From Henckelia pumila (Eukaryota > Streptophyta > Magnoliopsida > Lamiales > Gesneriaceae): a stretch of 64,000 nt of DNA. Made by a program: the position numbers and the translations under genes. The stretch is taken from assembly GCF_033568475.1 (NCBI RefSeq), contig NC_133123.1:139516062-139580061 (forward strand), written 5' to 3'. This document shows positions 53,059 through 61,209 of this stretch, piece by piece. The notes below the pieces were generated by a model that saw only the letters and a program-made list of their open reading frames with translations, searched no databases and was not told the DNA's origin. How positions within the stretch are numbered: position 1 is the first letter of the stretch; every line of letters begins with the position of its first letter.

Positions 53059-53276
53059 ATTGCATTGACATTTTTTTTGCCTTTTTCCTGAAGTAATTTT
53101 TGCCCAATAATTCTATTCAAAGCAATGTCTCCTCCGGAATGCGGATCAAGATAAAGCACTTCATAGAAATTCTTTGGGACTTCACTTTTACATCACCAGA
53201 AGAATAAACCCAACTTCAATAGTAGAAATGAAATATAAATAATAACTTTGGAAAATCATATTTTCAAATATTTTAA

Positions 53277-53360
53277 GGGCAACTTGTAGATAACTCCCTA
53301 AATCAAACATAACTTTCAATTTACTCCCTATATTTGTCTTTTCGAAAATGCCCTTGTCGT
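53277..53360. repeat. Left inverted terminus of the virus-bearing unit
   Basis: GGGCAACTTG...ACTCCCTAAATC...ACTCCCTATA...TGCCCTTGTC, lying between the 9-bp duplication and the coat protein stop codon. Pairs imperfectly with 60880-61006 in inverted orientation. Confidence 0.7.
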
Positions 53361-53364
53361 TATT

Positions 53365-54801
53365 TTAATCATTATTATTTCTTGAATTATCAAATGTGGA
53401 ATCGGATTCAAAATCTGATTCACTTGATTCATCAAGATAATAAATATTTTCATCGTCGGATGAAAATTCAATTGTTTCTACGGGATAGAATCCAATAGCA
53501 TATATTTCTTCAAGAAGTTTAATTTTATTTTTCTTTTCGTTTCGTTTTGGACATTCATTCGCATAATTTCCTTCTTCGTTGCACAACCAACATGTGCAAT
53601 TCTTTCCTTTACCCTTTGGGCAAGGTGGTTTTTTGTTATCAAACTTTTTATAAAATTTTCTTTTATAAGGTTTTCTGAAGAAATTCTTTTTAAATTTTTT
53701 TTTCTTATAGGGAATAAATTTCTTATTAAAAGATTTATAAGGTTTATTAAATTTATTCTGTTTCTGTCGTTTTAAATATTTGTGTGACATGTTTGTTTTG
53801 CAACCGTATTCTTTTACTGTGAATTCCATTTTGTCATAACAAAGTTTATTGTTTTGTTTGTAGGATTTAGAGATTCTTTTATTTAGTGTTACTTCATGAC
53901 ATTTCTTTGTTATTATGTCTTTGATGAATTTAATAGCTCCTCCTAAAGTTTTAGCATAAGGACTAGTTAAGAATTCATCTTTACTATGTATAGGTATATT
54001 AGGTATCTTATTAAAGATACTTAGTTTATAATGTTCCTTTTTATCAGCATCTATTAATTGATAATAGTTTGTTTCATAATCACAAATAAATTCTTCTAAG
54101 TAACATAAATTGCATAATTTAATATTATCTAATATAAAGATTGTTCTATTTTGTTCTATATTCTTAGCTACCAAATTAGCATCATTATTAGAAACTCCTA
54201 AAAATTCTTGGTACAAGGCATCAACAAATAGTTCGAAATATCGATGTCCTGTCATTCCTTGTGGTAGATTAGTAATTACTAGGTTTTCAGCCCAAGTTCT
54301 TACTGCTCCTACCAGTGTCATTTTTATCATCCCATGATTTAAAACTTGAATATTCTCACTTTTGTCTAATAATGGTGTTAATTGAATTTGTACTGATAGT
54401 TCATTTGCCCAATGATCTATCTTTGATTTTCTTTCTTTGGCTGTTGAACAACCTAAATCTAAGATATTCTGTTTCACAAATCCTGATGTTTTTGATTCTC
54501 TAAGAATATCTCTAACATCTTTATAAGATCCAGAGTATTGGTCTATGTTATATTTAAATTCTTCATCATCTCTTCCACCACTACCTTCTACATTCGTTCG
54601 TAGATTTAATCGTGGTCTAGAATCATCTTCAGATTCTGATTCTGAAATATCCATATCTCTGTATTGTTCTGAGTCTTGATGTGAATGATATAATTCTTCT
54701 GTATTTACTCCTATTTGTTCAAAATCAGATGAGTCGGTTTCACTAAACATCTCCATACTTATGTTTGTCATAACTAAGGGGATTTCTATACCATGATTCA
54801 A
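53365..54801 (-). CDS. Caulimovirid coat protein, endogenous copy
   Basis: 478 aa, uninterrupted. The N-terminus is acidic (SESESEDDSRPRLN near residue 52). A central region typical of caulimovirus capsids follows (ADKKEHYKLSIFNKIP..., AIKFIKDIITKKCHEV). Then come a strongly Lys/Arg-rich block (KKFKKNFFRKPYKRKFYKK, about residues 365-385), a zinc knuckle CWLCNEEGNYANEC near 404-417, and an acidic C-terminus. In caulimovirid coat proteins the knuckle has a His where this copy has Asn, so zinc binding may be lost. The protein packages pregenomic RNA. Its ATG overlaps the end of the preceding small ORF by 59 nt, a usual arrangement in these genomes. Confidence 0.85.
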   Translation of the reverse strand: MNHGIEIPLVMTNISMEMFSETDSSDFEQIGVNTEELYHSHQDSEQYRDMDISESESEDDSRPRLNLRTNVEGSGGRDDEEFKYNIDQYSGSYKDVRDILRESKTSGFVKQNILDLGCSTAKERKSKIDHWANELSVQIQLTPLLDKSENIQVLNHGMIKMTLVGAVRTWAENLVITNLPQGMTGHRYFELFVDALYQEFLGVSNNDANLVAKNIEQNRTIFILDNIKLCNLCYLEEFICDYETNYYQLIDADKKEHYKLSIFNKIPNIPIHSKDEFLTSPYAKTLGGAIKFIKDIITKKCHEVTLNKRISKSYKQNNKLCYDKMEFTVKEYGCKTNMSHKYLKRQKQNKFNKPYKSFNKKFIPYKKKKFKKNFFRKPYKRKFYKKFDNKKPPCPKGKGKNCTCWLCNEEGNYANECPKRNEKKNKIKLLEEIYAIGFYPVETIEFSSDDENIYYLDESSESDFESDSTFDNSRNNND

Positions 54802-55036
54802 TTTTGAATGGTGGTTCTTCTTCCATTTTTCTTTTTCCTTTATCTATTGGAAGAACTTCCTTAAGATAGTTTAATATTTCATTACTATGTCTTTTTTGTT
54901 CAATTATTAATCTAGTCGTTGCTAAATCAATATATTCTTTGAAATTCTTCTCTAATTCTTGTATTGATAGATTGATCTTATTAATATTATTTTCTAAATC
55001 TCCTAGATCTTTTTCTAATTTTATTAAGGACGTCAT
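54743..55036 (-). CDS. Virion-associated-protein-like small ORF
   Basis: 97 aa, with ATG overlapping the stop of the movement protein gene (ATGA). It is highly helical with heptad-like spacing (LEKDLGDLENNINKINLSI, then LEKNFKEYIDLATTRL), followed by a Lys-rich C-terminal stretch KGKRKMEEEPP. Position between movement protein and coat protein, size, coiled coil and basic tail fit the caulimovirus virion-associated protein, which tetramerises and binds nucleic acid. Sequence similarity is too low to be certain from inspection alone. Confidence 0.6.
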   Translation of the reverse strand: MTSLIKLEKDLGDLENNINKINLSIQELEKNFKEYIDLATTRLIIEQKRHSNEILNYLKEVLPIDKGKRKMEEEPPFKIESWYRNPLSYDKHKYGDV

Positions 55037-58860: not shown

Positions 58861-60848
58861 TGGATCACTTAGGATCTTCTTTGTTATTCCGTTACTACGG
58901 ATAGTATAGTTTGGATGAAGTTCTCTGGTTAATGCGTCGGGTAATGAATTATCCGTTCCTTTGACATGTTGGATCTCGAACTGATAATGGTTCAATTCCA
59001 ATTGTCATCTAATTAGTCTTGCTGCATTTCTCCCTGCATTTCTTGATATTTTTCTTGTCTTGAAATATGTTAAATTCATATTATCTGTTCTTACTAAAAA
59101 CGATTTAGAAATAAGATAAATTTCATAAGTTCTAATTGTGAATATTAAAGCTAATAATTCTTTTTCATTCGAATGATAATTTAATTGTGCACCTTGAAAA
59201 TTTCCTGATGTATAGTTGCATAATTCTTCATTATTTCTAGTAGCTGTTTTAGTAAGTTCTTCTAAATTTCTTTCTCCAGTATAAGCTTTTAAACATGCTC
59301 CCCAGTATTCATCTGAAGCGTCTGTTTCAATTATTATTATATTTTTATTTGAAGGAAAATATAATTCAGGAAGATTACTAATTATTTTCTTTTTAATAGT
59401 GTCTATGTAATTAGTATCTTCTTTCGACCATTTCCACTTATAGTCCTGTTTAAGTTTTACCTGAAGAGGTTTTCTGATTTTTGCAAGTTTCTTAATGTAA
59501 TTTTCAGAATAAGTTAATAATCCTAAAAATTTTCTTAATTGATCTTTATCCTTAATTTCACTAGGAAAATCATGAATTTTCTTAAGTATATGCGGTTGTA
59601 AACAATGTTTTCCATCTTCTATTTGTAATCCTAAATAATTTATTTTTGTTTTGAATAATTGTGCTTTCTTTTCAGAAAGTATAATTCCATCTTTATGACA
59701 AATATCTAAAACTGTCATGAGATCTTTATAATGTTGATCTAGTGTTTTTGAATAAATTAATATGTCATCTATATAAACACAACAAAAATCTATATATGAT
59801 TTAAAAGATTCATCCATATATCTTTGAAAGATACCTGGTGCTTGTTTAAGTTCGAAAGGTAATACAGTCCATTGATACTGTCCTTTTGGACAACTGAATG
59901 TTGTAAGTAATTGTGTTTGTGGTTCTAGTTGAATTTGCCAGAATCCTGATTTACAATCTAAACTGGAAAAATATTTCATTTCTCCTATATAAGATAGTAA
60001 ATCATTTTTATTTGGGATATAATATACATCCATAATTGTTGCTTTATTCATCTTTCGATAATCAATTACCATTCTTTCTTATCAGTATCTTTCTTACTGA
60101 CATAAAAGGCTGGTGAAGAATGTGGACTTTTGCTAGGGATGATTATCTTAAGTTTTAATAATTCTTGAACTTCTTTTTCAAATATTTTTACATCATCCAT
60201 GTTACATCTTCTTGGTGCTTCACGGATTGTGATATTAGGGTCTTTGAGTTTTATTGAAGCAATGAATTGTTTTCTTTTCTTAATTTTGTCCTGAGGATTT
60301 TCAGAACATATATCATGAAATTTTCTCATGATTTCTTTTTCAGGATTAATCGTTAAAATATTTTCTATTTTTAGTTCTATTGGATTCGTATTTCGTTTAT
60401 GAAAATTCTTTGTAAATCCTTCATTTCCTACGCAAAATGTTGTTCGTATTTTGGGGATATAAATCATTGATGATCCTTTGTTTAAAGTTATGTGATCTTC
60501 AAATTGTGTAAAGGGAAGATATTTTCTTAAAAAGTTATTTCCTATTATAATGTTCATTCCTGATTCTATTTGATATATAATGGGTATTACAAATTTTGTT
60601 TCTTCTATTTCTATTTTTAATTTTTCTACTACTGTATTAAGCATGATTATTGATCCATCTCCTATTCGAACTTTTAATCCTTTATCATATTTCTTCCAAT
60701 AATGATTTGGAAGTATATGTTTGCTTTCTAAATACATACTTGCTCCTGTATCAACATAAGCATGTATACGATATGGTTTATGTTCTTTGATTTTAATTTA
60801 AATTTTTATATATATACTATTTGGATTAGTTTTGTTTTTATTATCCAT
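58804..60848 (-). pseudogene. Caulimovirid pol (protease, RT, RNase H), broken
   Basis: An ATG at 60846-60848 begins the frame, which is stopped by TAA at 60798-60800. It then continues open through the protease AYVDTGAS motif (about 60740-60763) and NNFLRKYLPFTQFEDH to a frameshift near 60066-60072, where a few bases are missing. RT follows in another frame: MVIDYRKMNKATI, SSLDCKSGFWQIQL, LPFELKQAPGIFQRYMD and catalytic VYIDDILIYSKT. RNase H has IETDASDEYWGACL and LNYHSNEKELLALIF. A TGA at 59005-59007 replaces a Trp codon before QLELNHYQFEIQHVKGTDN. Three lesions (two stops, one frameshift) inactivate an otherwise complete gene. It uses the order protease-RT-RNase H of the family and no integrase. 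Confidence 0.88.
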
Positions 60849-60879
60849 TCTCTCATTTTTTTTTATTTTTTTTTTAAAA

Positions 60880-61006
60880 GATAAGGGTAAAATTGGTATT
60901 TAGAAACAAAAGTTTCTCTCTCCAGGGAGTTGAAAGTAAGTTTTATTTATGTAGGGATTTATAAATAAGTTATAAAGTGGTTTAGGGAGTGATTGGCAAT
61001 TAACCC
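60880..61006. repeat. Right inverted terminus of the virus-bearing unit
   Basis: Ends ...TTTAGGGAGTGATTGGCAATTAACCC next to the 9-bp duplication. Reverse complement aligns with the left terminus at 53277-53360. Confidence 0.7.
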
Positions 61007-61209
61007 ATATTTTAATCACCTGGGGCCAGAAAAGTTATTTTACTTTGATGCACAAGAGTACTGTATTATAAATAAAAGATTTTCGAATAATTTTAACCTA
61101 TTTTCACTTTTTTTCTCAATTTCAATAATATGTTTGTTTTGATTATTTTTTATTTTATTTAATAATCTTATAATGAAAATCTTCATACGAACATCCTCGG
61201 ATTTGCACT

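What the first reader, a model, noticed from the sequence alone, without database searches (positions are those of the whole stretch)
53268..61015. A whole pararetrovirus genome bounded by Mutator-like inverted termini and a 9-bp target duplication
Seen: ATATTTTAA directly repeated at 53268-53276 and 61007-61015. Inside it are imperfect inverted termini (GGGCAACTTG... and GGGTTAATTG..., both continuing into ACTCCCTAAA, a second ACTCCCT and a CCCTT word). Between them are all caulimovirid genes with only ~88 bp and ~158 bp of extra sequence. Known: Caulimoviridae encode no integrase and their endogenous copies are thought to integrate by illegitimate recombination, without TSD or inverted repeats; Mutator-like elements give 9-bp TSDs and can capture host DNA (Pack-MULEs). 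Inference: either a DNA transposon captured a complete circular virus genome and moved it, or a virus integrated into a small Mutator-like MITE already present. The first would be a new route for spread of viral genomes.
Basis: partly seen in the sequence, partly recalled or inferred. Interest (0 to 1): 0.9.

Follow-up and report, generated by a model that had tools for sequence, protein, structure and literature searches.

The report
Plant virus genome moving with transposon ends
A plant DNA virus genome of a family that has no integrase of its own sits between Mutator-like transposon ends and has been inserted as one unit, with 9-base target duplications, at many places in its host's chromosomes, which suggests that a virus can spread through a genome on borrowed transposon machinery.

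Summary
The window copy (53277-61006) is a caulimovirid genome, opened between coat and polymerase genes, inside imperfect inverted ends (19 of 26 outer bases) and an exact 9-bp duplication. It is no one-off: the assembly holds 321 right and 297 left termini (26-mers, up to 3 mismatches; control 0). In 21 copies with both ends in hand, of 33 tried, flanks match 9/9 in 18 and 8/9 in 3. Of exact termini sampled along contig C1, 20 of 20 right ones carry the protease gene and 20 of 20 left ones the coat gene; none of 42 paired ends lies under 1 kb apart. So termini and virus form one mobile unit. Changes fixed between two terminus-bearing subfamilies are mostly synonymous in protease and RT (33 of 42), which suggests a used polymerase rather than a dead passenger; the transactivator-position piece does not show this. 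MULE transposase domains abound; the matching one was not identified, and virus copies without termini could not be searched for. Nearest precedent: Teratorn. No printed caulimovirid case was found in the searches made.

The parts
53268..53276 (.). left copy of the 9-bp target-site duplication ATATTTTAA
53277..53364 (+). left terminus, 88 bp non-coding; outer 26 bases occur 297 times in the host with up to 3 mismatches
   Evidence: 20 of 20 sampled exact left ends have the coat gene next to it
53365..54801 (-). coat protein ORF (478 aa), weak match to Caulimovir_coat_dom
   Evidence: PF22909 E 2.2e-4, below its curated cut-off
54743..55036 (-). small ORF of 97 aa, position of a virion-associated protein; no Pfam family above cut-off
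   Evidence: function inferred from position
55033..55983 (-). movement protein
   Evidence: PF01107 E 3e-35
55984..57323 (-). stretch without long ORF, presumed intergenic/promoter region (inference)
   Evidence: ORF lists; not scanned for domains
57324..58535 (-). ORF of 403 aa, position of the transactivator (ORF VI); no Pfam match at E up to 0.1 and no homologue at E up to 0.001
   Evidence: fold model poor; identity inferred from position
59005..60072 (-). reverse transcriptase and RNase H
   Evidence: PF00078 E 1e-31, PF17917 E 6e-19, PF17919 E 1e-15; best-scoring of 115 relatives 54% identical
60066..60737 (-). aspartic protease
   Evidence: PF02160 Peptidase_A3 E 3e-28
60738..61006 (-). 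right terminus with its inner non-coding stretch; outer 26 bases occur 321 times in the host with up to 3 mismatches
   Evidence: 20 of 20 sampled exact right ends have protease sequence next to it
61007..61015 (.). right copy of the 9-bp target-site duplication ATATTTTAA

Best explanation
A caulimovirid genome lineage has become fused to Mutator-like ends, so that virus and termini make one 7.73-kb mobile unit. A Mutator-type transposase supplied in trans by the host's own MULEs cuts at the GGG ends and inserts the unit into AT-rich 9-bp targets, giving the duplications. Shown: whole-unit copies, precise ends, 9-bp duplications, constant opening between coat and polymerase genes in the copies examined, no transposase among the six viral ORFs scanned, MULE transposase domains in the host, and mostly synonymous fixed changes in protease and RT between two subfamilies. 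Inferred: that the enzyme is a MULE transposase, that it acts in trans, and that between insertions the genome also multiplied as a replicating virus, probably as a circle with its two ends joined.
For: Termini are abundant: right 26-mer 321, left 26-mer 297, reversed-pattern control 0 for both. Both ends in hand for 21 of 33 copies tried (17 of 31 pairs; 4 of 4, two of them copies that had failed): duplications 9/9 in 18, 8/9 in 3. Exact ends sampled along C1: protease sequence attached in 20 of 20 right termini (in L097 and L098 only its first 155-158 bases), coat gene in 20 of 20 left termini. Distance between paired exact ends: 42 left ends with a right end within 45 kb, 21 of them at 7.3-7.8 kb, none under 1 kb. 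Subfamily D copies have both ends and duplications (L115 8/9; L111 and L113 9/9), and the right terminus diverges in step with the genes. Fixed D-versus-M differences: protease 17 synonymous, 5 nonsynonymous, 0 stop; RT-RNase H 16, 4, 0, against at most 27% synonymous if neutral. PF10551 transposase domains: 150 scored of 1189 candidates, several in open frames over 700 aa.
Against: No MULE with matching ends was identified. The N-terminal piece of the transactivator-position ORF goes the other way (5 synonymous, 22 nonsynonymous). Among recent copies most changes look neutral, with many stops and frameshifts. Cut-and-paste alone does not explain about 300 copies. 14 of 31 pairs tried lacked one end in the fetched stretch; two were found later farther off. 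Of six left-end stretches fetched for D copies and L101, five held neither left terminus nor viral sequence, so the left end of the most divergent lineage (L101) was never seen. Virus copies without termini could not be searched for.
Confidence: 0.82

Rival explanations
1. Passive Pack-MULE: a MULE captured one virus genome once, and the dead passenger was then amplified only by DNA transposition; viral proteins played no part.
For: Most variation among 37 coat and 34 movement-gene copies looks neutral: singletons 60 syn/163 non/22 stop in CP and 42/115/15 in MP; 49 frameshift against 8 in-frame singleton indels; stops stand in two or more copies at 17 CP and 4 MP codons. No synonymous excess in the transactivator-position piece.
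Against: Fixed differences between subfamilies D and M are 33 of 42 synonymous in protease and RT. Shared indels are 4 in-frame to 1 frameshift by place and length, 3 to 1 if the inserted letters must agree; the 15-bp ones may be one event. Five sites that mark coherent copy groups (CP 270, 288, 1284; MP 102, 204) are all synonymous, but I picked them by eye and left out a nonsynonymous cluster at the MP start shared by about six copies. Shared stops scatter over unrelated copies, mostly at G>A, C>T, C>A and G>T sites, and look recurrent.
Confidence: 0.27
2. A virus landed inside a resident Mutator-like MITE at this locus.
For: Would give the same picture at one locus.
Against: Hundreds of termini; 20 of 20 right and 20 of 20 left exact termini sampled carry virus; 0 of 42 paired ends under 1 kb. 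It could still be how the very first fusion arose.
Confidence: 0.02
3. The inserting enzyme is not a MULE transposase but another one that leaves 9-bp duplications, or a retrotransposon integrase used in trans.
For: No matching MULE found; the ends are only imperfect inverted repeats; published ideas include retrotransposon machinery for caulimovirid integration (PMC10377300 section 3.1).
Against: A constant 9-bp duplication with GGG...CCC inverted ends fits Mutator-like elements (recalled); most LTR retrotransposons leave 4-6 bp (PMC12440569 abstract); MULE transposase domains are abundant here.
Confidence: 0.12
4. Illegitimate recombination with chance flanking matches, as proposed for endogenous caulimovirids in general.
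For: A usual model (PMC10377300, PMC13308828, PMC4241990).
Against: Precise ends and 9-bp duplications at 8/9 or better in 21 of the 21 copies with both ends; cross-paired control 14 of 272 at 8/9 or better.
Confidence: 0.01

Closest known systems
Teratorn (piggyBac transposon fused with a whole herpesvirus, teleost fish)
   Same: Whole virus genome between DNA-transposon ends, moving as a unit (PMC5601938, start of abstract in a listing; PMC10175614, passages).
   Different: Different virus family (reverse-transcribing caulimovirid, 7.7 kb against 180 kb), plant host (inferred), Mutator-like 9-bp duplications instead of piggyBac, and no transposase in the six ORFs scanned.
Pack-MULEs
   Same: Mutator-like ends with 9-bp duplications around foreign DNA, no own transposase (recalled definition).
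   Different: Carries a complete virus genome at constant junctions, with hundreds of termini in the genome and mostly synonymous change in protease and RT between subfamilies.
Endogenous caulimovirids (for example florendoviruses)
   Same: MP, CP, protease, RT, RNase H; no integrase; high copy number (PMC4241990 passages).
   Different: Those are described as mostly fragmented or rearranged, often at TA repeats, and thought to enter by break repair (PMC4241990 passages); here ends are fixed, with 9-bp duplications.
Retroviruses and LTR retrotransposons
   Same: Functional analogy only: reverse-transcribing genome with chromosomal copies bounded by a constant target duplication.
   Different: No integrase found; ends are transposon-like and not long terminal repeats.

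Membership tests
Caulimoviridae | movement protein, coat protein, A3 protease, RT and RNase H in one 7-8 kb genome | tested here: met
   coat match below curated cut-off
Caulimoviridae | no integrase | tested here: met
   no integrase or transposase family at E up to 0.1 in the six ORFs scanned; stretches 55984-57323 and 58536-59004 not scanned
Caulimoviridae | circular episome and virions | not testable with these tools
   only genomic DNA at hand
Mutator-like elements | 9-bp (8-11, recalled) target duplication at many sites | tested here: met
   18 of 21 copies 9/9, 3 of 21 8/9
Mutator-like elements | terminal inverted repeats | tested here: met
   19 of 26 outer bases; longer repeat not supported
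Mutator-like elements | transposase in the element, or an autonomous partner with the same ends | tested here: inconclusive
   none in the six ORFs scanned; many MULE transposase domains in the host, but their ends could not be compared
MITE | short virus-free element with these ends | tested here: not met
   exact ends only: 0 of 42 paired ends under 1 kb; 20 of 20 right and 20 of 20 left termini carry virus
Pack-MULE | captured sequence is a passenger without selection during spread | tested here: inconclusive
   recent copies neutral, subfamily differences mostly synonymous in PR and RT but not in the transactivator-position piece
Teratorn-like fusion | virus genome between transposon ends, moving as a unit | tested here: met
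Teratorn-like fusion | own transposase gene within the unit | tested here: not met
   six ORFs scanned

The most novel reading that the evidence does not exclude
A reverse-transcribing plant virus that carries Mutator ends in its own genome and uses the host's MULE transposase as its integrase: it replicates as a circle with joined ends, inserts precisely through the transposase, and may leave the same way. It would be a caulimovirid with a regular proviral stage, a second and independent invention of the retroviral lifestyle.
Probability: 0.4. Interest if true: 0.96.

Novelty: new variant of a known kind. Interest (0 to 1): 0.88.

Why it matters
How caulimovirids enter plant genomes is called speculative in a 2023 review (PMC10377300, section 3.1). 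The 2023 Teratorn review calls the mechanism of integration and propagation of endogenous pararetroviruses unknown, and Teratorn the first example of a fusion of a cut-and-paste transposon with a DNA virus (PMC10175614 passages). Here integration leaves a readable signature in many copies, so the question becomes directly testable: which transposase, which intermediate, and whether the virus or the transposon drives the spread.

Tried and rejected
Extended inverted repeat beyond the outer 26 bases: not above shuffles. Directional target motif: first seen as WTAWTTTAA, but many of those copies came from probes that included the window's own duplication; among ends found by the 26-mers alone, T stands at position 2 in 16 of 20 left and 15 of 20 right flanks and A at position 8 in 17 of 20 and 15 of 20, while AA ends 10 and 12 of 20 and TT begins 7 and 8 of 20, so I read a nearly symmetric AT-rich target and drop the direction. 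Closeness of virus ends to MULE domains: 2 within 6 kb among 153 ends (0.28 expected, reached in 3.5% of simulations), not significant at 12 and 40 kb; both ends of a copy were counted and only 150 domains used; one further case on C77 lay outside the simulation; not used. End-to-end junctions: 0. Relatives in IMG/VR by the RT: 4 stretches matched a pattern, none encodes a relative. Homologues of the transactivator-position ORF: none at E up to 0.001; fold model poor, mean pLDDT 41, so no fold search. Search for other caulimovirid copies in the host with a divergent RT (P0005): not completed. Empty sites: not tested. Host identity: not determined.
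Full report
What is there. At 53268-61015 ATATTTTAA flanks a 7730-bp unit. Its genes lie on the minus strand: protease, RT and RNase H, an ORF in the transactivator position, a non-coding stretch, movement protein, a small ORF, coat protein. Protease and RT lie in two overlapping frames in this copy. 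The best-scoring of 115 RT relatives is 54% identical. Compared with a circular caulimovirid map (recalled), the genome is opened between coat gene and polymerase gene, and the termini stand there. The 26 outer bases of the two ends match at 19 positions, which 1 of 200000 random pairs from the window reaches; a longer repeat is not supported.

It is a family, not a locus. A 153-base left probe and a 156-base right probe gave 458 and 473 candidates, of which the 40 best each were scored, all 94% identical or more. Whole-genome counts of the outer 26-mers with up to 3 mismatches are 321 (right) and 297 (left), with 0 for the reversed control patterns. Only the first 100 exact places of each were listed. 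Among these (96 left ends on C1-C3 and 100 right ends), 42 left ends have a right end in the proper orientation within 45 kb: 21 at 7.3-7.8 kb, 4 at 5.9-6.4 kb, 14 at 8.2-20 kb, 3 beyond, none under 1 kb. The longer ones may hold nested insertions or be wrong partners, except for two checked by their duplications.

Target duplications. Of 31 pairs of ends tried, 17 had both ends in the fetched stretch: 14 match 9/9 and 3 match 8/9; 272 cross-paired controls give 14 at 8/9 or better and 3 at 9/9. Three further left stretches (L054-L056) had no fetched right flank and were not tried. Four more pairs, made with exact left ends, match 9/9 in 4 of 4; two of these (L111, L113) are copies that had failed because their ends lie 16-18 kb apart. 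So 21 of 33 copies tried have both ends; 18 of these are exact and 3 differ by one base. Among ends found with the 26-mers alone (20 left, 20 right), the 9-mers are AT-rich, with T at position 2 in 16 and 15 and A at position 8 in 17 and 15, nearly symmetric, as expected of a transposase acting alike on both ends (inference). An earlier, directional motif came largely from probes that contained the window's own duplication and is withdrawn.

Termini and virus belong together. To avoid probes that contain viral genes, I took exact right ends on C1 in the order, one left out because it was already held: 20 of 20 have protease sequence at the usual place, in two of them only its first 155-158 bases. 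Twenty exact left ends on C1, eight already held being left out, have the coat gene in 20 of 20. No empty element was seen; ends with mismatches were not sampled. A search for right end joined to left end within 0-20 bases, without mismatches, found none, so no tandem arrays through these ends were seen.

How it evolved. Recent copies are near-identical: median pairwise difference 2.3% in a 1374-base CP piece (37 copies) and 2.4% in MP (34 copies), and their private changes look neutral (CP 60 syn, 163 non, 22 stop; MP 42, 115, 15). These copies were the ones most like the window at the left end. With recalled plant rates of 7e-9 to 1.3e-8 per site and year this is roughly 0.9 to 1.7 million years, inflated by the many G>A and C>T changes. 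The piece examined is free of stops and frameshifts in 5 of 37 coat and 9 of 34 movement-gene copies, the window among them. Older structure differs: subfamily D (L103, L106, L111, L113, L115) differs from the window-like group M (19 sequences, 18 copies, since L013 and L099 are one) by 42 fixed changes in protease and RT-RNase H (at least 80% within each group), 33 of them synonymous and none a stop, where neutral change would give 19-27% synonymous (p about 1e-10 at 30%, sites taken as independent). I defined the groups after seeing the distances, and left out L097, L098 and L110. L101 is more distant (against M: protease 39 syn, 27 non, 4 stop; RT 48, 20, 0, its private decay included). The N-terminal piece of the transactivator-position ORF goes the other way (5 syn, 22 non) and differs by 15-19% from the window copy in D-like copies, against 5-7% in RT and protease, so this part is fast-changing or recombinant. 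Three D copies have both ends with duplications (L115 8/9; L111 and L113 9/9), and the right terminus diverges along with the genes; for L103, L106 and L101 the left end was not found. The simplest reading is one old fusion whose polymerase stayed in use while it diversified.

Mechanism. Shown: precise ends, constant 9-bp duplications, whole-unit copies, constant opening. Also inferred: a replicating viral circle between insertions. A linear chromosomal copy opened between coat and polymerase genes cannot by itself yield the terminally redundant RNA that these viruses copy (recalled biology), so a lineage with selected RT would need excision to a circle or new infection; maize Mu is recalled to form extrachromosomal circles.

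Comparison. [quoted passage not shown] PMC13308828 and PMC4241990 (passages) favour filler DNA in break repair. The Teratorn review (PMC10175614, passages) calls Teratorn the first fusion of a cut-and-paste transposon with a DNA virus and the spread of endogenous pararetroviruses unexplained. Searches for caulimovirid or pararetrovirus with inverted repeats, target site duplication, Mutator-like, Pack-MULE, transposase or DNA transposon listed no paper whose title or shown start of abstract describes such a unit; 20 of the 35 papers were not listed, and only open-licence papers are held.

Noticed in passing
window 1-50000: The window is repeat-rich: Ty3-type and copia-type retrotransposon ORFs (for example 31514-35929, 37330-39627, 8180-12667, 26102-27556) and a PF20167 plant transposon ORF at 1849-3429; 10 ORFs scanned.
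   Followed up: partly
L103, L106, L111, L115 and L098, inner end; window 58310-58610: D-like copies differ by 15-19% from the window copy in the N-terminal part of the transactivator-position ORF; D copies differ by only 5-7% in RT and protease, as if mosaic or fast-evolving.
   Followed up: partly
L057-L095, coat and movement genes: Many recurrent G>A and C>T changes shared by unrelated copies, as if from methylated-cytosine decay.
   Followed up: no
L057-L095, start of the movement gene (window about 55935-55952): About six copies share a cluster of nonsynonymous changes, and six copies a 9-bp in-frame indel, at the MP start, possibly recombination.
   Followed up: no
G000:C1:163151840 and G000:C3:177333517: Two virus right ends lie 2-5 kb from a MULE transposase domain.
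   Followed up: partly
L016: Two right termini in opposite orientation within about 1 kb.
   Followed up: no
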